A stretch of DNA of 64,000 nucleotides, from contig NC_058338.1 in assembly GCF_905475395.1 (NCBI RefSeq), positions 72,985,435 through 73,049,434 on the forward strand, given 5' to 3'. Under the pieces are notes generated by a model. It did no database searches and was not told the origin of the DNA. It saw nothing but the letters and a program-made list of their open reading frames with translations. Positions 48,626-64,000 of the stretch are shown in pieces (position 1 is the stretch's first letter; each line of letters begins with the position of its first letter). The stretch comes from Chrysoperla carnea (Eukaryota; Arthropoda; Insecta; Neuroptera; Chrysopidae). The position numbers were made by a program, and so were the translations under genes.

Positions 48626-51400
48626 AGCACTCACATTCAACAATTTATATACAGAGTATTTTAACAATGAACTCAGTAAATTGCTTGTTTTCACTTGCTT
48701 GACTTAAAAAAACACATAAAAACACTCGAAAAAATTAAATAAAAAGAAAAATTCTATTTAGCTTAATATCTATTCTTAGCTTAATAACTTCGGTTTCGTT
48801 ACTCTCATTTATAATCGGTAGGTATTTACTATAATACATATATTTAGTCAACAACAAAAAAGACTGATTTAGTCTCGAATATAGATCTTTAATAAAAACA
48901 ATTGTTTAAATATATAAAAATATAAATATGTTTTGGAAATTTTGTTAAATTTTTATTTAGATATTTCCTCTCGCCATCAAGCAAAAATAAAAAATTTTAA
49001 TGCAAAAGCCCAATTAATCCAACTAAATTTTCTTTAAACAAAGTGTTTTCGAAAAAAATAGTCCGAATAAAAGTTGTAAAATTTGGAAGGGAACAATAAC
49101 CTCGAATTTTATCTGCAATTTTAAAATATAACTCATATTTGTTACTAATATATGAAATTTTTAATTGAAAAATTATTCTACAAACAATTTTTCTTGAAAA
49201 AAATTTTTCAAACACCTAAAATTCGCCAGTAATAAAATGCAAAAAAATATATAAAGTTGGCCTTAGTCACCTAGATTTCGAAGAAATCAAGCTACGACAG
49301 ATTTCTGTATTCTATTTCCATCGAATTTATTAAGTTTGCGAAAAAATGTTTTTACAAGTGTTGTATGTTTTATAAAGAATATTTTCTGATATAAACATTT
49401 CCTCTATCTCTTTTTGTTTTTAAATTTGAATATTCAATCATACAGAAAGTTATGGTCAAATTCGATATCATCGAAATATGTCTTCCTACAAGAACAACAA
49501 ATTTTATCCGCGCCATTTTGTTCCTGTATAAAAGTGCTGTTAAAGCTACAATTTTTTATAACTTCATTATTTCCTAATAGTATAGTAAAATCGTCGAAAA
49601 AAAGAATGTAAATTTGCGTTAAATTGAAATTCAAACAAATTTTAATAGAAAATAAGGGATGCATCCAGACTTAACTTAATCTGAAAGTTATAGGTTTTGT
49701 CTCTAAAAGTCATATTTATCACAATTGGTGGATAACGTCTGACCACACACTCCAAAAACAAAATAAAAAATTATTTATAATTTTTATCAGTTTTATAAAT
49801 CACAAAATCTTGATATTCCATAGTTAAGGTACCGGAGTCTCATTTTACAAGTTTTTATTTAATTGGAAATTTTTGTATCTTGCTTGTTCGGATTAAATCT
49901 TGCAACTGAATTTTAAAACCGCTATCCTCAACTGAATGCATGGCTACACCTATGTGATCTCATACTAAATCCAATCCCTCACATGATATGGGTATAAAAT
50001 TAAAGAGTTTGCTAAGAAAAATATAATAAAATTTGTAAAACGAGGATGACAATGCATTTTTATAGTAAACATGACTTGATTTTCCCAGCGCTTCCACCAT
50101 ATTTGATATACATACCTACTTTTTTGAGTTTTAAATTAAAAATATAAATATAAATTACTTTTTAAAGGACAAGCTTTTATGGTATTAAAGCATGAGGCGC
50201 TTTGAAACATCCTTGATACTTTTAAATGAGCACCCAATCTTTTACGAATAGTCATGTATAAGTGACTAATAAAAATAATTATTTTCTACTTTTTAAAAAA
50301 TTAAACACTGTCTTTTAAAACGTATTTTTTATAAAAATTTTTTAATTATATGTGAGTGTAGTAAATGCCTATAAATTAATTGCAAAATTTCCGACAAAAA
50401 GAAGTCGCACAAACAGATATTTTTGCATGTATTTTGCAGTATTTGAAGTTATCTTATTTTTTATTTCTCTAACCTACATTTCCCTGCGTACTTCCTTATT
50501 TGTTTTTCATTATTTACTTCTCATTTTAAAACTTATCGTGTTGGTTAATGATAGGCTAGAGAAATAATATTAAGATTTAATTTTGTTCATTAGGTTATTT
50601 GTATATCATATCTGTAATAAAGTTGCCTATAAATAGAAAGAAAGTAAATTACTTTTGATATTTTGTATCACATATACATAATACATTATTTATCTACGCC
50701 CGTGAGATAAGAAGTACTTTTCTCACTCAGTATGTGTGGGAAAATAGTTCATTACCACCCAAATAGTTAGAGGCGTAGATAAAGTTTTGTAAGATACACG
50801 TGTAATAACGCATTATTGTCGCGATTGTCCAACTCGTGCCACGCACTTGTTGTGCAAATTTCGCAGGCGTACGTTAATAATGCTGTTAACTTACTAGTAT
50901 CGTAAAGAACTATTCTATAGCTAAGTTACGGTATAATTAATAAGAAGCTGTAAGAATAATACTTATCTTAAGAACTAGTGAGGTACAGCTTTTAATTTTT
51001 AACGTTTTTCAACTTTTTCAGCTTTATAAGTTTTAAAATTTTTGGAAGAAAACTGTTTTTTTCATTTCTCAATTATCCAAAAGATCTATATGATATCAAA
51101 TTTAACATTAAAATTATTTTATAGCCTTTCAAATATCTATAACCAAATTTTCAGCGTTACTCAAATTTTTGAATTCAAAAACTGTATTTCTTATACTATT
51201 ACTACATTTTTTAAAGTTAAAAAATTTATAGATATTTCTCCCTGCCTTATCAATGTGACAATGTCTTGTTTCTCTCGTCTTTCGCGGTATCACTGTTTAC
51301 AGATAAGTTTAAATTAAAATATAATAGCTCGCACTTGACAGTAAATTTTTAGGTTTTATATTTGTTTAAGTTTTAATTACATATAGTTTTAGATTACACG

Positions 51401-54105
51401 ATGAACAAAATACATAAATATTTAATTATTTTAAGTGCAATAAGTGTTTATTTATCTGAATGTGAAAAAATACCAAAGAGAAAAGGTGTATTTACGTTGG
51501 TGTATTTTTTAATCATTTTCAAAATATAATTTTTTGCTCTCATCTTTTAAGTGGCTTGTATCGATGTGGAAAGTCCAGAGGCCAGTAAATGTAGACCTCG
51601 AAATACTACCGTTGATATTTTGGAATTGTTAGTTAACGAAAAAGATAGGAGGACCTACCCTTTAATCTCTGGCGCTAAGGTAACTAAAGTTGTATAGATT
51701 TTTATAAAATTAATAGCTGTACCCTGCTAATGTTTTTACTTTATTGGTTAAATTCAATAGGCCCTGCCCATAACTTCTTAACTATTGGGTTTTGGACATA
51801 GCTGAATGTTAATACTTTTGAAAGCAGAGCTTTTTATAAAGAATACATTTTTAAACCTTATAATAAAACAGTTTTCCATATGTAGCCAACTTATCTAGAC
51901 GCCCTGCTAGATTGATAAACTCGTGTGATTTTTAAGTATCTATAGTGTGGACATAAACTCATGAATTATCAAAACTAATCAAACAAACTTTCTACATTAG
52001 TAGTACAAACTCTTTTTACGATATTTGATTAATTTCAGTCGATTAATAATGTATTTATTATTTTTAGATGTATACAGTAATTTTACCTCGTTGTTCGGGT
52101 AATTGTGACGACCAAGAAACAAGCTGTATGCCAGTGAAACATCAAATTACAAAAGTAAAAAAGAAAATCTGGATAGAAGAGTCACAAAAAAAATTTGTTG
52201 TAGAGTTAGTTATGCACGAAGGTTGTGAATGTGGCTGTGACATAAAGGCAGAAGATTGTAATTCAAATCAAGTATATAATGAAGATTCGTGTTCCTGCAG
52301 ATGTAATAAAGATAAGGTAAATCTTGAAATTGTATACCTCTTTGATCTTCATGTGTATTCTACAGAAAAATGCAGTAGGTAAAAGTGTTCTATAATGATC
52401 CCTCATAGTAAAATGATCCCTCGTTGTTTTAAGTGAACCATTAAAGCCATCTAGTATATTTATCTATAGATGGCTTCCACGTGATCAAATTAATCGTTCA
52501 ACAAAGACTTATGGATATTAAGCTATTTTATGTTTCGTAGCCAAAATATTAATTTTACTGTTTATGGTCTATGGTAAGACAAACATCGCAATTTTTTTGT
52601 TTTTTGTGTTAGTTTCTGCCGCTTGGTTGGTTTACCCTTGACTTCTGTTGTCTTTCAATTACATTTTGGTAGGCGTATAATAAATTTTTAGTTTAGTTTT
52701 TATGACGATGTTCAAATATGTATTTACGTTTAAAATGATCCTTTTTATATTCGTTAAAATGTTCCCTATTTTGTGTGTAAAATTATAATACGTAAATAGA
52801 TACCTCATCATGTGGCGGGTCTTGAATGCGTTTATTTAGGTGATTTTAACAGTGATTCTTGTTTTCATACTAATCGTTGATGCAATGTAAAAAAGCAATT
52901 AATATTTAGTGTATAGTGTTTTGTAAAAAATGCACTGACCTGAATTATTTCACCCACCATTCTTACAAGGTCAGCAAAACGATGTTTTGAGAAATATCGA
53001 AAAATTTTAAATATTTGAACAAATCAAAAGAAATTGGCATGCCAATAATACAACACTTGAATAAAGAAACCAAAAATATTTCGACGGTATACATATCGCG
53101 AATATTTTGGCTATAAATTACATATTTTCTTAGGGGGATCATTATAGACCTATATCACCTTCCCCTAGTAATATTAAATTACAGAAACTGATTTAAAAAT
53201 TTGATTTTTCTGTCTATTTAAAAGCTGACTGAGTTTTTAGAATTTCTCGATTTTCAAAACTATAGTTAACGAAGTTAATGGGACTTTTCGACTTATTTTT
53301 AACCCTCGACCAACAAAGAAGGGTGTTATAAGTTTAATGTCTTTGTGTATTTGTGTATCTGTCTGTGCCATCGTCGTTTTAGTTTGAAAGATAATTGTTC
53401 TTTGCTATGTTTCAAGTGTGAGTTGAGAGTTTCGTACTTGATGATAACTAGAAAAGAGGCGAAGATGTTTAAGTGGCTGAGCAGATTTTCTTGAAGCATA
53501 GCTGTTGATTAAATTACCTTTAAAAAATATCAAAATTGGTTTCTTCGTTTAAATTAATTCGTTTAAAGATTTTGTGTCGAGGTTTCTTTAAATTTTTAAT
53601 TTTGTCTAATCACTTGACAACTTTAATCTCCAGAGATTCGTCGTGGCTAACGATACACCTGTATATTTTTAACTCAATTTTTGTATAATGTACAAAGAAT
53701 TAACTAGTTTTATTGACTAAATTTATTGACTAGTTTTATTTTTATTTTCAACTCTCGACTCTTGAGCCGTAAACCTTACTATTTTTATCCACAAATTAAT
53801 TTTTCGAATAATCTTTACTGCCTTGAATTGTCTTCTCCATCTAAAGTTGTATCCGTTATTCGTTGTCATCTGAATTTGGATATTATGTTTTCAATGCTAT
53901 TATGAAAAATGATTTTTTGTCGTAATTTGCTAAAGTTTAGAATTTAACTTTCGTTATTGTACTTTTGTACTAAAAAAGTTTTTATTCCTAGGTAAAGTGT
54001 ACAGAATACATGACTTTAGATGAAGGAGAATGTAAATGTATTTGTCACATGAAGCCAGATGCTTGTAGTTATGGAACTGAATTTTATCCAGACATATGCC
54101 AGTAA
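51401..54105 (+). CDS. PDGF/VEGF-related growth factor (Pvf-like)
   Basis: Secreted cystine-knot ligand; in insects such factors activate the Pvr receptor tyrosine kinase in hemocyte and epithelial migration. Exons: 51401-51485, 51552-51679, 52068-52316, 53992-54105, phases agree, 191 residues. The signal peptide is about residues 1-20 (LIILSAISVYLS). The knot domain runs from Cys42 (KCRPRNTTVDI) through RCSGNCDDQETSC (80-91) to GCECGC (123-128). Cys-rich tail repeats of the C-x-C-x-C type follow. Against PDGF-B and VEGF-A the domain aligns without gaps in the RCSGCC region, but both cysteines of the inter-subunit disulphides are replaced: Thr74 and Asn83. The stop TAA (54103) overlaps a donor-like GTAAGT, so a further exon is possible; I found no Cys-rich continuation downstream. 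Confidence 0.88.
53307..53420 (-). repeat. Dispersed repeat family R3, partial copy 3
   Basis: GGGTGTTATAAGTTTAATGT, then GTATCTGTCTGTGCCATCGT, matches the inverted R3 copy. It lies in intron 3 of the PDGF/VEGF-like gene. Confidence 0.5.
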
Positions 54106-54384
54106 GTTTCAAACTTATATAATGCTTTCTTTTGAGATTTTTCTCCGAGAATATTTTTTCGATACTGAAACAATAGCTGGATTATTATTTTTATTTCTGG
54201 TCAGTGAATATTCTCTATAACGGTGAGTAAATTTCTTTTGGGGTTTTTACAATATATATTCTTCTTAAATAATGTAATACAACCATTTAATTCTATTTTT
54301 AGTCATATTATCTCGAAAATATGGACTTATGCACTGTATCGAATGTCTACAGGTAGGGGTAGGGTGCATTAAATCTGTTTTAAA

Positions 54385-55035
54385 ACTAACTAATAGCTCG
54401 TTTTGTAGTTAACCAATCAATCATGTTCTGACATCACACTAGACCTAGTTCTTCGGGTATCTTTAATAGCCAATTTAGATCCTAAACGGCAAGAGATAGT
54501 ATGCCATTAAATTAGAAAGTTGATCCTCATAAAAAAACTAACATTTTTCATCTTAACAATTTTTTCGAAATTTGTCAGCTTTTGAAGAAAATTCAACCTA
54601 AAAATATGCCATTATTGCATTTAATCGAAAGAAAACACGCTAACTGCGGAAAAATGGTTAGCCAAAAGTTATCAAGGGCAATAGAAGACATTCTGTGCCC
54701 ATGATTTTGACCTGCAATTATCGATAAACTTTAAGCGCATTTTCTTTCGATTAAATGCAATAATGATATATTTTTAAGTCGCATTTTCTCCGAAAGCTAA
54801 TGTTTATCGAAAAAATATTTTAAACAAAAATTGTTATTTTTTTATGAGATTCAACTTTCTAATTTAAAGTGCTATTTTATCTCTTACCTTTTAGAATCTA
54901 AATTGGCTATTAAAGCAACTAGAAGAAGTAGGTTCAATATGATGTCAGAACATGATGCCCTCCATCAAACTATGTAACTTTTGTTGGAGTTATTTTTTTA
55001 TTGGTTAACTTCAAAACGAATTATTTGCCATTATT
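54385..55035. repeat. Foldback element with about 230-280-bp arms
   Basis: The left arm (about 54385-54652) and right arm (about 54730-55035) are complementary at roughly 75-80 percent by eye. Landmarks are GTTAACCAAT, CATGTTCTGACATCA, TTTAATAGCCAATTTAGAT and TTATTGCATTTAATCGAAAG, each with its complement. The right arm has about 40 extra bases near the outer end. It lies between the convergent PDGF/VEGF-like and arylsulfatase genes. Confidence 0.8.
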
Positions 55036-55223
55036 GATTAAAATGAACGACTCTGTACATAATTTTTTTCCGGTTGCATATGAGCGTCAATAGCGACCTT
55101 CTGTGGTTAAGGTGAGCGTAAATTCAATATTTAGGGCTGTTATACTAGATGAGACAATGTTATAAATGAATTTCGGCAGTTTAAAAAGAATTAAAAGAAT
55201 AATATTTATGTATTGTTCTAATT

Positions 55224-55229
55224 TTTATT
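55224..55229 (-). terminator. Poly(A) signal of arylsulfatase-like gene
   Basis: Minus-strand AATAAA (plus TTTATT) about 56 bases past the stop codon at 55285. Confidence 0.6.
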
Positions 55230-55284
55230 GATTAATTTTTTCGGGAATTCAAAAAGAAAAGAAAACTCAAAAGAAATATGTTAG

Positions 55285-58200
55285 CTATACAAAAACAAAG
55301 TAGTGGTGATGTATATCAGAGTCTTTGCTTAAATCATTTGGAAATTCAGGAATTGCGGTGATTTTTTGTCTTTTAAGGTTTTTCGGAAATCTGTTTTTAT
55401 CTTGTATTGTATTTTTAGTTATCGCACCACTATACCATCCGTGATCATGCAATTTTTTCATTCTATCACTCTTTTTCGTGAAATTATCACCAAATGCTGA
55501 CTTTCCCATTACATTATTATTTCTAGAAGCACTTTTTCCAAGTGGTATATTTTCATTACCATTTCTAAATTCAATATCATCGAAATAAGTCCATACATGA
55601 CCATGATTTTGGGGGTTAGTACGAGGATCTCCGTCTAAATTCGATGGAGGCACAATTGAGCCTTTGTATTCATCTAATTGTCTTTTTAGTTGAACGTATA
55701 TTTCCAGATTCCTAAAAAATATAATCAAAAAATTACCACAAATATTGACAATAAATAGAGTAACAATTAACAAAAAATAACAACTTGCAATAATTATAAA
55801 CTAAGTTAATACAAATTAAATTGTTACGGATTAAAAAGTTTATGAAAAGTTCTAGATAGGATTGGTTAATTTTTTAAATTAACGTGTTACTATTTCGCTC
55901 CAAAAATCGCCACTATGTTTTTTTAACGCGTATCTAAGGACACTTGGCTTTTGAAGACGAATAAAACGATACCTGAATTGTCGAAATCCATCGATCCGTT
56001 TAGAATACGACTTAATAAATAAATTTACAAACATACATACATAAAAAGTACGCGCGAATAAAATAACCACTCTTACTACGAGCGCCAAATCAAAATTGAA
56101 AATATATTTTCTTTTAAATTTGTGTTCCCACTACCGTGCTCATACATCCTTAATTAGTCGGACACAACGGGTTTTTTTTTATTTCATTAATTTATTAAGG
56201 TTTCAGCTTTAATTTAAATGTGTGTTTTTTTTTTGTTTTTTTTTTTTTTTTTTTCCCTAGTTTTGGAGAAAACTATGAAAATATATCATCCATCTACCGT
56301 TTTCCTATAAGACCTACTTATGTCCCTATATATACCTACTTTTGAAATCATTTATTTATTTAAAAAACCAAGCCTTTAATCAAAAATTTCCCTGGCGCTC
56401 GTACATCCTTAACAGTAAAATTAGGCAATGTGTTTTTATATTAACCAAAGGTTTTTTTAGCTTAAATCAGAAATTTGTATCATATTTGCGCAAAAAACTT
56501 ACTTATTAGCCAAATTCTCAAATTCACATGGATCATTCTTAATATTAAACAAACATGGAGCTTTTCTTAACTGGCATTTATTATTTTCAGTTGTCGTTAT
56601 ATTTGGACAAATTCGTCTCAACTGGGCATCATTTCGTAATTCAATAATTTTTTTTGGGAGGCTTGCCATATTCATGGAACTGAGAATTTTGCCAACAGTT
56701 GAATTTGTAATATCCGTTAACTTATATTCTTTATTTGAATCAGCAGGGGAATGCCAATGGGATATTGATTCAGGTTCATCAGGTCCTAAAATTTAATATA
56801 CATTGTTAAGCAAGTAAAACGAGAAAAACAAGAGTTAAGATGGCTACTTAATTATGATAATCGAGACAAAAAAATTAACCCCCTCCAAATTAAGGGCTTT
56901 GTTTCTAAGGGTCTGGAATACAAGAAATCTGAATTTTATAGTTGAAAATTTGTAGATAGCTTATTGATTTACATAACAACATTATCCAATATTATTTAGA
57001 AGATAAAAATTTGTTACCTATTAATTAATTAATGCTCCAAAAAATATTTCTTTTTTGAAATATACATAATTTGAAATGAATATTCTTCATATATCGAAAT
57101 ATATTTAAGATTTTTTTTCTAGAAAGTTTTTTTTAAGTGTCTTGTTAATAATTAAAAATGTAAATCTAAAAATTCTTACCCATAACGATTTTATAATCAC
57201 CAACAGTTAAAGCTGCAGTTCCGTCAATATCATCAATATTGTGCAATATTTCTGTACGATTTGTGGGTTTATCTTCCGAAAGAGTATTCCAAGAATCAAT
57301 CCCATCTATATCCTTTCTCAATTCTCTAGAAAAATTTACCATATATAGATTTATATAGAAAACAAAAATGACAGCGCGTGAGTTTTGAAAAACTTGGATG
57401 CTTCATAATCTGACTTCAACTTCCAAGCCAGATGAAAAGTATGTCAGTGTTGAAAATTAAGGCAATTTCCCGAGTGAACATGGCTAACGTATTATTTAAT
57501 ATTACATTTATATTTTCCGGATAAATGTTTTCACAATATGTATTCTGTATATGATAGAGCCTAACATAAAAAATCGATAGGTATAAAGATTACTAAAGTG
57601 ACTAAAGAGTTGAAAAAAGGACTTGATCTTTGGACCAAAATATGATAAATTGTCATTTACTTAGTTTTTCTAGACTAGATTAGAGACATAAATTTCGATT
57701 TTTGCCCCAATTTCCTAGATCAGTTTTTTGTATTTTTAAAATACGTATTTTCGACTACCAAGTAGTCATCATCAGTAAGAATTAGCTAGTGAATGTTACT
57801 CTTTGCTAATTTGGTGGCGGACTGCACACTAGCTAATTCTTACTGATGATGACTACTTGGTAGTCGAAAATACGTATTTTAAAATACAAAAAACTGATCT
57901 AGGAAATTGGGGCAAAAATCGAAATTTATTTCGATATATCCTAGAGTTCTCATTTATTATCTTCGATAATATTTATATTAGATTAGAGACGTCATCTCTG
58001 CATAGAGACCTGGAAGACGTCCTTATTTTAATCCTTTTGCCATGCAATCCTTATGTCAATGGTCAAGTGAGATTAAAAGCCCAGATGTGGGGAGGAGTTT
58101 AGTCATACGCAGATCTTATGTCAATTTTTTGTGATCTACTCAAGATACCCACTATCTTAATGTCCTATGACAGATTTTCGGTGCTTTATACTAACATAAA

Positions 58201-61200
58201 ATTTCAATACTAAAAGAAAATGATTTTTTCAAATGTTTGCTACGCGTTTCACTCGTAAATTTCAATTCCCTTCCTGCAACATTGATCTGTCATTAACACA
58301 GTCGATGGAAAAATAAAAGTTTAGTTACGTTATATTCCCACCAGCTGCATGGTATAAAGTTGGTAACCAATCGGTCATATCAAATGGTTTTGTTGAAATT
58401 CTTTGCCTTTTTGATAAGAATGGACTCCATATGAATCCAACACCGCGCACACCACCTTCAAATAATGAACGCTTTCCTCCACGCAATGGCCAATTTGATG
58501 CGACATTAAAATGCGGTTTGTTTTTAGCATCTTCAATATAAATTGATCCACCATTATCGGTACTAAATACTATAATACTCTTAGCTAGTAAATTCTTCTT
58601 TTTTAATGCATTCACAATTTCACCCACTGAATCGTCCAATTTTTTTACCATAGCTGAGAGGGTAAAAACAAAATAAATTACTTGCTAGATCGGGGTTCTC
58701 ATTGAGTCTCGTTTATTCAAGCGAGATATATAATATATATTATATATTATTTGGTATCTATCAAACTGATCTCTATTTAAAATAATGGGAGAGCCAGGCC
58801 AAAAAAATTTCCTTGAATTGAATAAAGCTGATCATTTGAGGATTGGTTTAAGTAGTTGTGACTCACACATACTGCGGGCAGTCAAGCGAACGATAGAACA
58901 GGAGTCAGATACATGCTATCGAAACGGTTATGCTTTCCGTGGAATTTACTAAAGCTGAAAATTGTTATAAAGATTGAATATTGCAACGTAGTTTTTGTTT
59001 TCTGATAGCAATTTTGTCATCCGTTTCGTAGATTAATTGGATTATTTGTATGTTTTTTGAATCGATTTTGACCATAAAATTACCCTTCATTATATTTTGG
59101 CCAGAAATTTGATATAAATACTCCATTGTGTGGTTGTTATTGTTTTATCGCCAGATGATCTGTCTAACTGTTTCTTAAATTTTTCATACAAAAAATTAGT
59201 TACCTGCATATTTTCGCCGATAAATATTTTCAATTGAATCAAACAATGCAACGTCTTCATCTAATGCCGGTAATGGATTATATGGATTGCCTGAATGGAC
59301 AGCTGCATGCGCGACGTATAAAAATAATGGTTTAGTTTGCTTATGTTTATGTATTATTTTTACTGCCTCTTTCGTAAAAATGTCGGTTGTGTATTGTCCG
59401 TGCAAATCGTACGCAATATCCATATTACGTCGCATATCATGACCCCATTGCTTTCCCTGTATAGATGTGTGATCGAAATAATCTTGGTATTCTGTCCAAA
59501 ATCCTAGGTGTGAATCAAAACCGCGAAATGTAGGTGTATACTCTTTACGATAATGACCTAAATGCCATTTGCCAACCATTCGTGTTGCGTATCCTGTAAA
59601 AATTGTGATGTACTTTTAAGAATAAAAAAATTTAAAAAAAGTTAAGGTAGTACGAGCGCCAAGGAAAGTTTAGACTTGTGGTTGAAATTATTTGTACCTC
59701 ACTTTCAACAAAAATAAAAATAAAATTTTTCGATATCGGCGTTGATTTTCGAAATATCGAGAGTAATTAATTAAACAAAGTTTTCAATTTTCGATATTTT
59801 GAAAATGACTCCAGGTTTAAGGTTATAAGGTTTTAGCATTAATTCGTTTTTTTTAAATTTCCACCGACTAGTTTTGGAGAAATCTGTTACCACCAATGTT
59901 AAATATGTCTACTTTTGAAGTTTCATTTATTTAAATAATCGGACAATCCTCCCTAAAATTTTCAGAATTGATTTAGACTTAGTCCAATTTTATATTTAAA
60001 AAATCAAGCCTTTTATCGGAAATTGTCCTGGCGCTCGTACATCTTTAATTTACAGCTTACGATCTCACTTCTGTAGAGAGAGTTGGACGACTGGGGATTT
60101 TTAGGTGCGAAAGATGAGGGTGTCCTAGCCACAATTGTGTTGACTTAACAGGGTTAGAGCAATCACCTCTTTCATCAATCACGCTGCAGGAGAGGTTGGG
60201 GTTGTAAGTTGCATATTAAATTTTTTGACGTACCCAAATCTTTAAAATATTCCGGCATTAGTTTTTCATTTAATGATAGACCACGTGTTTCGTTGGCATA
60301 TAAATTACCATGCTGCATACCCGTATGTATTGGATATTTTCCTGTCATTAATGCACTTCTTGAAGCCGCGCCAGAGGATGGCATTGTGTAACGATTTAAT
60401 ATTACACCAGAATATGCTAAAGCATCGATATTTGGTGTTGGAATTTCATTCGAACCATGAAATCCGACATCATTAAATCCCTGAAACATAGTAGACACAA
60501 AAGTAGACATAAATATTTTTGAAAATGTACAAAATAAAAAAAAAACGAATAATCGTACGGTTATAAATTACGTATCAAATTGGAAAAAATAGACCTTTTC
60601 GTAAATATATATATGAATTTTTAATATTTTTTTGTTCAGTTTTCGCTTTCTTTTTCGTACTATCGAAAAAAAATTCATAAATATGAAAAAAAAAAACTCA
60701 TTACTTTTTGTTGAAAAAATTTTGCCGAGTAAGAGTAAGCTGCACTGACTGATTATTGATCTCGGATTCAGGCTATATTGCGTATTTGATGGACGCCCAA
60801 GCCTCGAGTTACAAGTCGGTGAAATGAGAGATACAAATAAAACACAGCACCTTGGTTGACACGTTCCCAGCCCTTGTAGTGATCCGAAAAAATTCTTTCC
60901 CAGAAAATATGCTGTATCTCCAAAAATAATTCGACTATTGAAAAATCCGTTTAAGGGCTGATTGTTTAGGGTCTAATCTTTAAAAATATGCACACACAAA
61001 ATCGATTTCATCAATTTTCTAGACCAGAATACGGCCTTAAGTAAGTTCGATCAGAGGCGGATTAAAAGTCGATCTCATCGCCCCTATAGCGGTCATATTT
61101 TATAAATTTCAACTAGTCTAATCTAGGTATGTTTTGAGACGACGCAAGGTTGAAAAGAAGCGTTCATTCGTCGCTGTTAGCACAGAAAAAATTGCTAGAA

Positions 61201-61976
61201 CGCAAAACATTTAGTAGACATTCGGAAACGCATCTTTATTGCAAATATAGAATGCTTCGAGTGAATTTTTGGCACCCAGGCAGGCAATGCGTTTTCGCCA
61301 AAGGTAAACTTCCGTCTACCCAGATATCACGGGAATCATCGCGCAAAATTGAATATTCTAAATTTGATAAAAAATTGCGATGATTTAAAATTCGATATAT
61401 AACCTTCAAGTGAATCAGTCTGTATATTCGAGCGTTGAGTCTATTATGATGCGAACATTGACTTCCGCACTTCTATGTCGTATTCATCGCAGATATCGCT
61501 CATTGAAAATTTTCCTGAACTCTTCTCTGACGTTTCCTCTTCTTTCAAGCAAAATATGTTTTTCAGCATCAGTTAGTTCGATAGCCTCGCTAAGACCCAG
61601 GTTTTCTGCTTGAAGTACTCGATTCAAAGACAAAGTGAAAGAGCCTAAAATATGTATAGATATTTGATTCGTCAGTGGAAATGAGTCTCATAAATGGGTG
61701 AATTTACAGGACTTAATTGTAAGTGCAAAATTTTTGTCAACAGATTCTCAATGGGAGAAGTTTTGACCCCCAAAACCTCTCCCTTACGCACGGGCCTGTT
61801 TGAAACATTGACGCAAATTAAATATTAATTGTTAAATGAATCGTACTTACCAAATCGTCAGCTAATATAAATATAATATTTGGTTTCGCATCTTTGGCTG
61901 CAGTGACTAATATTGTTTGAATAAAAATAGTAATTACAAGTGTACATTGTTGTATTATTGGCAACATCTTATTCAT
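55285..61976 (-). CDS. Arylsulfatase B-like protein, probable pseudoenzyme
   Basis: Sulfatase-fold protein of the lysosomal/secreted arylsulfatase B group. Exons (minus): 61976-61851, 60480-60234, 59593-59204, 58653-58329, 57325-57180, 56785-56503, 55711-55285; phases agree, 647 residues. The signal peptide is about residues 1-27. Metal and active-site residues present: Asp40-Asp41 (ILADDLG), Arg83, Lys133 and His135 (GKWHLG), His224 (LFLYVAHAAVH), Asp287-Asn288 (STDNGG), Lys315 (NWPLRGGK). The formylglycine motif C-x-P-S-R is instead G-A-A-S-R (residues 79-83, RYTMPSSGAASRSALMTG): the catalytic Cys is Gly (codon GGC) and the Pro is Ala. Without the Cys no formylglycine can form, so classical sulfatase activity is not expected. 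The frame is intact, so it is not a pseudogene by sequence. The C-terminal exon is longer and more polar than in vertebrate ARSB. Confidence 0.93.
56073..56412. mobile_element. MITE family M1, copy C
   Basis: It starts near TTACTACGAGCGCC and ends with CCTGGCGCTCGTACATCCTT. An internal GTGCTCATACATCCTTAATT at about 56136 duplicates the right end of copy A, so this may be two partial copies joined. It lies in the last arylsulfatase intron and contains long T-runs. Confidence 0.55.
57688..57929. repeat. Near-perfect intronic hairpin (104/103-bp arms)
   Basis: Arms 57688-57791 and 57827-57929 are complementary over their full length except for one extra T in the left arm; the loop is 35 bases (57792-57826). 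The 12 bases TAGATTAGAGAC occur as a direct repeat just outside, at 57676-57687 and 57979-57990. The segment lies in arylsulfatase intron 4 (57326-58328). Confidence 0.95.
59643..60048. mobile_element. MITE family M1, copy D (most complete)
   Basis: The left end TAAGGTAGTACGAGCGCCAA and right end CCTGGCGCTCGTACATCTTT are imperfect complements of about 22 bases. It is 406 bp long, non-coding, and lies in arylsulfatase intron 2. Confidence 0.75.
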
Positions 61977-62224
61977 GAATCTTTTATATTATATAAGAAA
62001 TAAATCATATTTCATATTATTTATATAAAAATATGTGTAATTTAATATAAGATATAATTAAAATCAGATACTGGTATTGTGTTTAGATTTTGAATTAATT
62101 CTAAATCATATTAAGTTGCGTTAAAGAGTCTGAATTTTACTTTAAGATGGGTGGTGCAGTCTTTCATACCTACAAGATACAAATATAGATAGAACTTTAT
62201 CCATCTGTTTATCGAATTAAAGTT

Positions 62225-62525
62225 ATTATTCCCTGTATATATGAAATATATATCAAGGTATACCAATTTTAGTCCCAAGTTTGTAACGCTTAGAAATATT
62301 GATGTCACTAACAAAGTTTTGGTATAAGTGTTTATAAAATCACCTAAGTAGTCCATTTTCGTTTGTCCATCTGTACGTCTGTCCGTGAACACGATAACTC
62401 AAAAACGAAAAGAGATATCAAGCTAGAATTTTTGTATCGTAACGTAAAAAGTGAGATTGAATTTGTAAATGAGCAACATAGATCAATTGGGCGTTAGATC
62501 CGCAAAATTAAATCTTGTAAACCGT
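62225..62525 (-). repeat. Dispersed repeat family R1, inverted copy 4
   Basis: It carries the complement of the 32440-32730 copy over nearly its full length, including CTAAGCGTTACAAACTTGGG-type sequence and TCGTTTTTGAGTTAT. The open frame at 62111-62392 arises from this repeat and is not a gene. Confidence 0.75.
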
Positions 62526-63889
62526 TAGAGATAGAACAAAAGTTTAAATACATATTTATAAAAAAATAGCAACTTTTGTTGTAGCAGCCAAAAGACCGCC
62601 ATATAATTGTGTTAGTTTCTTTAAACTTTTCTAATTTACTAAAAATAATACAAGCACTGGCATTCAACTTTCTACACAGGGTTTTTTTTTTCAATTTTTT
62701 TACCGGACTGTCAAGGAGTTTTTCGCGCGTATCTTGTATGCATGCATATATTTGTTTGTAAATTTCTTTATCACCTAATATTTTCCAAACGGTTCGATGG
62801 ACTTCGACAGAAGGTATCATTATATTCGTCTTAAAAATCCAAGGGTTCTTAGATGTTTGAAATAAAAGAGCAAACTTGGGTATTTTTGGCGCAAAATAGT
62901 AACGTTTATAAAAAAATTAAGCAAAGCTATTGAGTATAGTATCAAATTAAAAGAAACTAAAAGCGTATTACAAAAATTTGTATACATTTCTTCAAATTTA
63001 ATTAGAAATAGGTTTAAAAAGTTTTAATATAGTATACTTAACAAGAAGGTTTTTGTAGTGCCGTAACACTAAAAAGTAAAAAATATGATAAAAAATAAAA
63101 ACCCGACTACGTTAAATAAAATCTGAAAAGAAACAAGTACAGTTGTTTACATAGCAACTTTAACAACTAGGACCAATTAAAATAAAGACGGGCTCATATG
63201 TTCCCAATAATAGACCCCGACTGCTGGGCTTTTTCTTTTTTTTCAGATTTGATTTAACGCAATCAGGTTTTTATTTTCTTAATTATTTATTTTTTACATA
63301 AAATGTTAACTAAGATCTCAGAAATGTAAATATTGTGAATTAAAACACCAAAACTTTGAAACCTCGCGACCCTCATGCATGACCAGTTTTTCAGAATCAA
63401 CCTTAACCTGTTTTCTTTGTCTGGATTCGAAAAATAATCCAGTTTTTCTTAGAGATTTATTTATTACGTAAGAATTTTGCATCATAAGAATTACTTGAAG
63501 GGTTTGAGAAATATTACATGTTTTGTAAAAAAACAAAACGGTTGATTTAGGCTAAATTATGCCGAAATCTGTTTGGTTTTATGTGTAAAATCTGATACAG
63601 CATATTATATCTATGCCAAAATTAAATAAAAGCTTTTTTGAAACGGAGCGCTGGAAAATTAATAACTATTCATTATTATTGTGACACGTTTTCAAATATG
63701 AAATTCATATAAATTTCCATTAAATTAGTTTGAAATAAAACTCTATATAAGGATAATATAATAATAATTAAATATCTTTTTTATTCCAATTTAATGTTCT
63801 GGTTCTTGAACGAATTGGTAGAGAGACGTATTTTTAGTGTGGTTAGGTATATGGTAATATCATAAAATGTAATCAAATTATCGACGGGT

Positions 63890-64000
63890 AGTGTCCGACC
63901 GAAGCTCCAGCTTCGGCTTCGGTTTCAGCCACCTTCGGCCAAACCTTCGGCTTCGGCCTGAACTTCGGCCGAATTTGAAGGTTTGACCGAAGGTTCTTAG
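63890..64000 (+). repeat. CTTCGG-rich minisatellite at window edge
   Basis: About ten CTTCGG or TTCGGC units with interspersed complements (CCGAAG, GGCCGAA) in the last 110 bases, so it is both tandem and partly palindromic. Its GC content is far above its surroundings. It continues past the window end. Confidence 0.8.

What the first reader, a model, noticed from the sequence alone, without database searches (positions are those of the whole stretch)
60234..60480. Arylsulfatase with only its catalytic cysteine motif destroyed
The protein keeps the metal-binding Asp-Asp, the active-site Arg, Lys-x-His, distal His, Asp-Asn and Lys. Yet the C-x-P-S-R formylglycine motif reads G-A-A-S-R (Gly79, Arg83). 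Two motif positions differ, plus a one-residue insertion just before, so a single sequencing error cannot explain it. The frame and splice sites are intact across seven exons, which suggests selection for a non-hydrolytic role such as binding sulfated glycans. Loss of activity is inferred from known sulfatase chemistry.
Basis: partly seen in the sequence, partly recalled or inferred. Interest (0 to 1): 0.72.

Follow-up and report, generated by a model that had tools for sequence, protein, structure and literature searches.

The report
Lacewing arylsulfatase without its catalytic cysteine
A green lacewing gene keeps the shape of a sulfate-removing enzyme but has lost the one residue that does the chemistry, next to a sister gene that still has it; similar losses are already reported in beetles and moths, so this looks like another insect 'dead' sulfatase, probably kept for another job.

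Summary
The main observation holds. The gene (7 exons, minus strand, 61976-55285, 647 aa) is an arylsulfatase-B homologue. Its formylglycine motif reads G79-A-A-S-R83, while the other catalytic and metal residues remain. The claimed one-residue insertion is not supported: the loop has the same length as in its tandem sister and in human ARSB. Instead, eight consecutive codons (60387-60364) were rewritten from YVTALCTP to TMPSSGAA.

The assembly matches Chrysoperla carnea chromosome 2. The head-to-tail sister, just beyond the window, keeps CTPSR, as do the two other ARSB-like genes found, so the loss is specific to this gene. Pairwise omega to the sister is 0.08, and outside the loop it evolves about as fast as the sister. 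Silent sites are saturated, so the loss cannot be dated.

Cys-less insect arylsulfatases are already published: Ser in beetle Sulf2, Gly in Tribolium Sulf2 and in lepidopteran SulfB (PMC6823443). I judge this a new member of that kind, most likely a retained pseudoenzyme that can still bind sulfate esters. A 6-residue insert beside the metal site and a basic 93-residue tail fit binding, but this is inference. Recent decay is not excluded.

The parts
61851..61976 (-). Exon 1: signal-peptide-like leader (by eye) and the metal-binding Asp40-Asp41 (LADDL)
   Evidence: Splice model, donor GTAAGT; matches sister exon 1
60234..60480 (-). Exon 2: altered catalytic loop; flanks nearly identical to the sister
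   Evidence: 12 amino-acid differences among the 74 codons outside the loop
60364..60387 (-). Rewritten loop: 8 consecutive codons TMPSSGAA in place of YVTALCTP of the tandem sister; no length change
   Evidence: 14 of 24 bases differ; 62.5% G+C against 34% for the CDS
60358..60372 (-). G79-A-A-S-R83 in place of C-T-P-S-R (formylglycine motif); Arg retained
59204..59593 (-). Exon 3: GYATRMVGKWH signature (Lys133, His135) and distal His224
58329..58653 (-). Exon 4: Asp287-Asn288 metal ligands, Lys315
58529..58546 (-). Six extra residues (SIYIED) directly after D287-N-G-G, absent from N, X and Y
   Evidence: MAFFT alignment
57180..57325 (-). Exon 5
56503..56785 (-). Exon 6
55285..55711 (-). Exon 7 with stop codon
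55288..55566 (-). 93-residue C-terminal tail, almost all of it absent from the sister: 17 K+R, 9 D+E, computed pI 10.0

Best explanation
The gene is a tandem duplicate of an arylsulfatase-B-type (family S1) enzyme that lost its formylglycine precursor. Without Cys79 no FGly can be formed, so the covalent sulfo-enzyme cycle cannot run: it is a pseudoenzyme as a sulfatase. Because the metal ligands and the sulfate-contacting Lys/His/Arg residues remain, it probably still folds, is secreted, and can hold a sulfate ester without cleaving it. It is probably retained for that binding (sulfated glycans or sulfated small molecules) or for pairing with an active paralogue. Shown here: the sequence change, its gene specificity, intact frame, purifying selection on average since duplication. 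Inferred: loss of activity, folding, secretion, binding, continued selection after the loss.
For: Gly79 aligns without gaps on the formylglycine position of human ARSB and on Cys of the three paralogues. Three of three ARSB-like paralogues found keep CTPSR, and FGE-family exons are present in the genome (which FGE-family gene was not determined). The other signature residues are kept. T-N pairwise omega is 0.083 over 512 codons and 0.081 over 504 without the loop. T branch omega=1 is rejected over 357 codons (p = 0.001) and weakly over 349 without the loop (p = 0.04); equal omega for T and N is not rejected (p = 0.67 and 0.30). Unique changes outside the loop are 13 in T and 10 in N (p = 0.68). 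The new loop is 7 of 8 small residues and 62.5% G+C, unlike neutral drift in this AT-rich DNA: 53 of 59,167 open 24-base frames from the gene's introns and window bases 1-50000 (both strands) are as rich in small residues (criterion chosen after seeing the loop).
Against: Silent sites are saturated (T-N dS about 3.3; T-X and N-X near 37-39), so selection before and after the loss cannot be separated. If the loop arose by one complex mutation, the loss could be recent. The branch test without the loop is weak (p = 0.04) and rests on a four-gene model of my own in which one branch length sits at its bound. With X as only outgroup there is a non-significant excess of changes in T (49 v 38, p = 0.28 without the loop; 56 v 38, p = 0.08 with it). 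No expression, population or orthologue data were available. Nothing here shows binding.
Confidence: 0.6

Rival explanations
1. Early-stage pseudogene: the loop was destroyed recently, the gene is no longer selected, and the frame has not yet broken.
For: Silent-site saturation hides recent events. One complex mutation could make all eight changes at once. The T omega=1 test without the loop is only p = 0.04. T has no E<0.001 match to Sulfatase_C, which N has, though N's match (21.2 bits) is below the family cut-off of 30.9.
Against: All seven exons, 6 of 6 introns' splice sites and 647 codons are intact. Changes outside the loop are about as frequent as in the sister (13 v 10). The other catalytic residues are kept. 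The loop's small-residue, G+C-rich make-up is unlike drift.
Confidence: 0.22
2. Changed catalysis: the gene still hydrolyses something, with water or a neighbouring Ser (Ser77/Ser78) replacing FGly, for example as a weak phosphodiesterase.
For: The metal site and Lys/His residues are complete. Pfam also reports the related Phosphodiest family (33.4 bits, cut-off 23). Ser replaces Cys in beetle Sulf2 (PMC6823443).
Against: N, with Cys, scores about the same for Phosphodiest (30.4 bits), so this is shared ancestry. The Ser residues are out of register, Gly being on the nucleophile position. Pro81 of the motif is also gone.
Confidence: 0.1
3. Assembly or consensus error, or a rare haplotype.
For: Reads were not available. 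The alternate haplotype is a separate accession (PMC10116181), which I did not see.
Against: 14 substitutions in 24 bases, in frame and with clean flanks, do not resemble read error. The matching published assembly was built from 40-fold PacBio long reads and 147-fold 10X reads. A 21-base stretch of the loop occurs once in the genome at up to 2 mismatches, so it is not a misplaced repeat.
Confidence: 0.04
4. Orthologue of lepidopteran SulfB or coleopteran Sulf2, so that one ancient Cys-less clade spans Holometabola rather than a fresh loss. (This concerns origin and does not exclude the best explanation.)
For: Gly at the same position is reported for lepidopteran SulfB and Tribolium Sulf2 (PMC6823443).
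Against: T is most like the Cys-bearing sister N: 308 of 512 identical against 253 of 579 to X and 185 of 362 to Y. T and N share an exon structure that X and Y lack, and tandem position. That paper's tree, per its text, puts SulfB and Sulf2 in order-specific clades.
Confidence: 0.12

Closest known systems
Lepidopteran SulfB clade and Tribolium castaneum Sulf2 (arylsulfatase-like; PMC6823443)
   Same: Insect arylsulfatase paralogues in small families, with Gly at the formylglycine-precursor position (stated in that paper; passages read; alignment figure not held).
   Different: Reported as order-specific clades. Here the loss is in one of two tandem sisters of a lacewing, with the whole loop rewritten, a 6-residue insert after DNGG and a basic tail. 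The loop sequences of SulfB and Sulf2 could not be compared.
Coleopteran Sulf2 (Ser-type; PMC6823443) and weevil RfARSB-11581 (PMC7084252)
   Same: A conserved Cys replaced in an insect arylsulfatase. For Sulf2 it is the formylglycine position; for RfARSB-11581 the passage seen says a Cys at the calcium-binding site became Ser, without naming the formylglycine position.
   Different: Ser instead of Gly, so the Sulf2 authors consider Ser-type sulfatases possible in beetles; Gly cannot give formylglycine.
Human arylsulfatase B (1fsu)
   Same: Best solved-structure match, E 1.5e-73, gapless through the loop.
   Different: Human enzyme has the formylglycine. After DNGG it is 10 residues shorter than T in the alignment. 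The tail was not compared.
Psylliodes PcGSS3-5 (catalytic His to Asn; PMC6823443)
   Same: Duplicated insect sulfatases with a changed catalytic residue that the authors report under purifying selection with function unknown (passages).
   Different: A different residue is lost and the formylglycine Cys is kept.

Membership tests
S1 formylglycine sulfatases (PF00884) | Match to the sulfatase family over its full length | tested here: met
   177.6 bits, cut-off 25, profile 1-300 of 301
S1 formylglycine sulfatases | C/S-x-P-x-R motif (PS00523 as given in PMC5066984) | tested here: not met
   G-A-A-S-R; both the Cys/Ser and the Pro are absent
S1 formylglycine sulfatases | PS00149 G-[YV]-x-[ST]-x(2)-[IVAS]-G-K-x(0,1)-[FYWMK]-[HL] (pattern) | tested here: met
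   GYATRMVGKWH, compared by eye with the protein
S1 formylglycine sulfatases | Metal ligands Asp-Asp and Asp-Asn, plus Lys/His/Lys of the site | tested here: met
   D40 D41, D287 N288, K133 H135 H224 K315; roles recalled
Active sulfatase | Hydrolysis of a sulfate ester | not testable with these tools
   Expected absent from the missing formylglycine precursor
Lepidopteran SulfB / coleopteran Sulf2 | Falls inside that clade in a tree | not testable with these tools
   No insect sequence outside this genome was reachable; look-ups in supplements are capped at 0
Pseudogene | Broken frame, splice sites or relaxed rate | tested here: inconclusive
   Frame and splice sites intact; rates close to the sister's; omega=1 test p 0.001 with the loop and 0.04 without; recent loss not excludable

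The most novel reading that the evidence does not exclude
A lacewing pseudosulfatase evolved, independently of the moth SulfB and beetle Sulf2 losses, into a secreted lectin-like binder of sulfated ligands: the nucleophile loop was rebuilt from small residues, six residues were added beside the metal site and a basic tail was gained, so that repeated loss of the same cysteine in tandem arylsulfatases marks a recurrent route from enzyme to binding protein in insects.
Probability: 0.22. Interest if true: 0.65.

Novelty: new member of a known kind. Interest (0 to 1): 0.42.

Why it matters
Eukaryotic sulfatases depend on one oxidised cysteine. Repeated loss of that residue in duplicated insect arylsulfatases, with the rest of the site kept, would be a natural test of what a sulfatase fold does without catalysis. 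It also warns that automatic naming as 'arylsulfatase' is unsafe: this gene scores 177.6 bits against PF00884 without the nucleophile. A Cys-bearing sister about 3 kb upstream gives a built-in control for any assay.

Tried and rejected
Compensated frameshift as the origin of the loop: other frames of the stretch do not resemble the sister's (by eye). Templated insertion or gene conversion: no other copy in the genome at up to 2 mismatches of 21 bases, and no word of 10-13 bases of the loop region elsewhere in the window (hits within 60341-60419 left out as the loop itself). Alternative exon 2 carrying the motif: none in 50001-64000. Loss of the modifying enzyme: FGE-family exons are present. 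A role in venom: the words sulfatase, arylsulfatase and sulphatase do not occur in the main texts of two lacewing venom papers (supplements not read). Glucosinolate link: C. carnea was studied as predator in PMC6934381 (passages); nothing on a lacewing sulfatase was in the passages shown. The whole-protein run test is not significant (longest run of changed residues 10, P(run of 8 or more) = 0.17 of 10,000 shuffles); the clustering claim rests on exon 2 (run of 8, P = 0.0001) and the conserved-site test. The codon models had not fully converged (a nested model scored higher); one search repeats them with more starts and its p values are the ones used (0.001 and 0.04, against 0.0008 and 0.03). 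A heparan-N-sulfatase-like gene on C3 (identity by eye) was searched for its motif exon, not found.

Full report
Identity of the window. The held genome has 337 contigs, a 100.74 Mb C2 and a 77.48 Mb C4. The published Chrysoperla carnea assembly inChrCarn1.1 has 337 scaffolds, chromosome 2 of 100.74 Mb and chromosome 4 of 77.48 Mb (PMC10116181, part 1 of 2 of the text read). Total length and chromosome 3 differ slightly (559.5 v 560.2 Mb; 94.12 v 94.41 Mb), so it may be another version of the same assembly. The species name is my inference from these numbers.

The gene (T). Seven exons on the minus strand, 61976-55285, join into 647 codons with GT donors and AG acceptors at 6 of 6 introns. Pfam gives Sulfatase at 177.6 bits over profile positions 1-300 of 301; the best solved relative by sequence is human arylsulfatase B, 1fsu (E 1.5e-73). 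Asp40-Asp41, Arg83, Lys133, His135, His224, Asp287-Asn288 and Lys315 are present (roles recalled). Position 79, the formylglycine precursor, is Gly, and the motif reads GAASR.

T has a head-to-tail tandem sister, N, also with seven exons. N lies just beyond the window, at C2:73050296-73057681 (64862-72247 if window numbering is continued), its stop codon about 2.9 kb upstream of T's start codon; the two start codons are about 10.3 kb apart. N reads NRYYVTALCTPSR where T reads NRYTMPSSGAASR. The two are equal in length, and T is equal in length to human ARSB here, so the claimed insertion is not supported. Eight consecutive codons all changed, 14 of 24 bases, while the exon-2 flanks are nearly identical (20 amino-acid differences in 82 codons, 12 of them outside the loop). 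Two further ARSB-like genes at 46.34 and 46.41 Mb (X, Y) keep CTPSR. Searches with ARSB exon queries found only these four genes, plus one weak match (E 0.14) to another sulfatase; the tool scores only the best candidates. Of the seven motif-bearing sulfatase exons seen in this genome, six have Cys and T alone has Gly. The motif exon of a heparan-N-sulfatase-like gene on C3 was not found.

Was the loop lost by neutral drift? The new loop is 62.5% G+C in a CDS of 34% and a window of 29.5%, and 7 of its 8 residues are small (A, G, S, T, P). Only 53 of 59,167 stop-free 24-base frames (104,556 taken) from T's introns and from window bases 1-50000, both strands, are as rich in small residues (the criterion was set after seeing the loop, and the sample includes any genes in that stretch). 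Among 154 sites identical in N, X and Y, T differs at 5 of 5 in the loop and 13 of 149 outside (p = 1.3e-5). First and second codon positions in the loop differ at 9 of 16 against 232 of 1008 elsewhere (p = 0.005); fourfold sites outside it differ at 65 of 126, so the loop has diverged about as much as silent sites. This favours a single complex event or selection for a new loop over slow decay because of its composition; the degree of divergence alone would also fit an old loss without constraint on the loop. These cannot be separated here. Against a strong clustering claim, a run of eight changed residues somewhere in the whole protein is not rare (P = 0.17); within exon 2 it is (P = 0.0001).

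Selection on the rest. T-N pairwise omega is 0.083 (512 codons), 0.081 without the loop (504 codons). In a four-gene codon model of my own, T omega=1 is rejected at p = 0.001 over 357 codons and at p = 0.04 over 349 without the loop, while equal omega for T and N is not rejected (p = 0.67 and 0.30) (earlier, less converged runs gave 0.0007-0.0008 and 0.025-0.03). Unique changes outside the loop are 13 in T and 10 in N (p = 0.68), or 49 and 38 with X alone as outgroup (p = 0.28); with the loop they are 18 v 10 (p = 0.18) and 56 v 38 (p = 0.08). Weaknesses: dS between T and N is about 3.3 and far larger to X, one branch length sits at its bound, so absolute values are unreliable and a recent loss cannot be excluded.

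Other T-specific features. Six residues (SIYIED) are inserted directly after DNGG, next to the metal ligands. A 93-residue tail, almost all of it absent from N, has 17 K+R and 9 D+E and computed pI 10.0; the whole protein has pI 8.67 against 5.97 for N. Both features fit binding of acidic, sulfated ligands, but this is inference.

Likely mechanism. Recalled chemistry: formylglycine is made from Cys in C-x-P-x-R by FGE and its hydrate attacks sulfur. With Gly79 there is no side chain to oxidise, and the Pro is gone as well, so FGE could not act and no sulfo-enzyme can form. FGE-family exons are in the genome, so the sister can presumably be modified. The remaining metal and charge residues could still hold a sulfate ester; solved entries of human arylsulfatase A appear (1e2s, 1e3c), which I recall as Cys69 mutants, one with bound substrate, but did not verify.

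Known cases. In PMC6823443 (passages read) the authors state that Cys is replaced by Ser in the coleopteran Sulf2 clade, by Gly in Tribolium Sulf2, and by Gly in the lepidopteran SulfB clade. PMC7084252 (passages) reports a Cys-to-Ser change at the calcium-binding site of weevil RfARSB-11581. The phenomenon is therefore in print. The listings of searches showed no report on a lacewing case, in a library that lacks most subscription journals. T/N sisterhood rests on identity (308 of 512 T-N; 253 of 579 T-X; 185 of 362 T-Y), tandem position, and a shared exon structure: X and Y have an intron after HTG that T and N lack. It suggests a loss separate from the moth and beetle ones, which I could not test by a tree.

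Verdict. A gene-specific loss of the sulfatase nucleophile in an intact, conserved gene; a new member of a known, little-studied kind.

Noticed in passing
57690-57940: Long inverted repeat (arms with AAAATACGTATTTTCGACTACCAAGTAGTCATCATCAGTAAGAATTAGCTAGTG around a short centre) in intron 4; looks like a small inverted-repeat transposable element. Seen by eye.
   Followed up: no
61100-61660: Intron 1 contains a coding-like stretch on the minus strand (TATNERFFSTLRRLKTYLD by eye) resembling the C-terminal part of hAT transposases; family recalled, not searched.
   Followed up: no
63895-63990: Short imperfect repeats of CTTCGGC type at the window's end, unusually G+C-rich for this genome (by eye).
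   Followed up: no
L012 (C2:46337000-46346900), minus strand: Paralogue X ends in a hydrophobic stretch (FNIILLAVIVILFIIVLVILLIISVKG) followed by a charged tail, suggesting a membrane-anchored arylsulfatase; no such stretch is seen by eye at the ends of T and N.
   Followed up: no
L014, C2:46411573: Paralogue Y has a strongly diverged small exon (MQGYPLRAMEPRAVPPGKLLPGYLK) in place of the conserved MQH...EPWGLPL segment of X, though its Cys motif is intact.
   Followed up: partly
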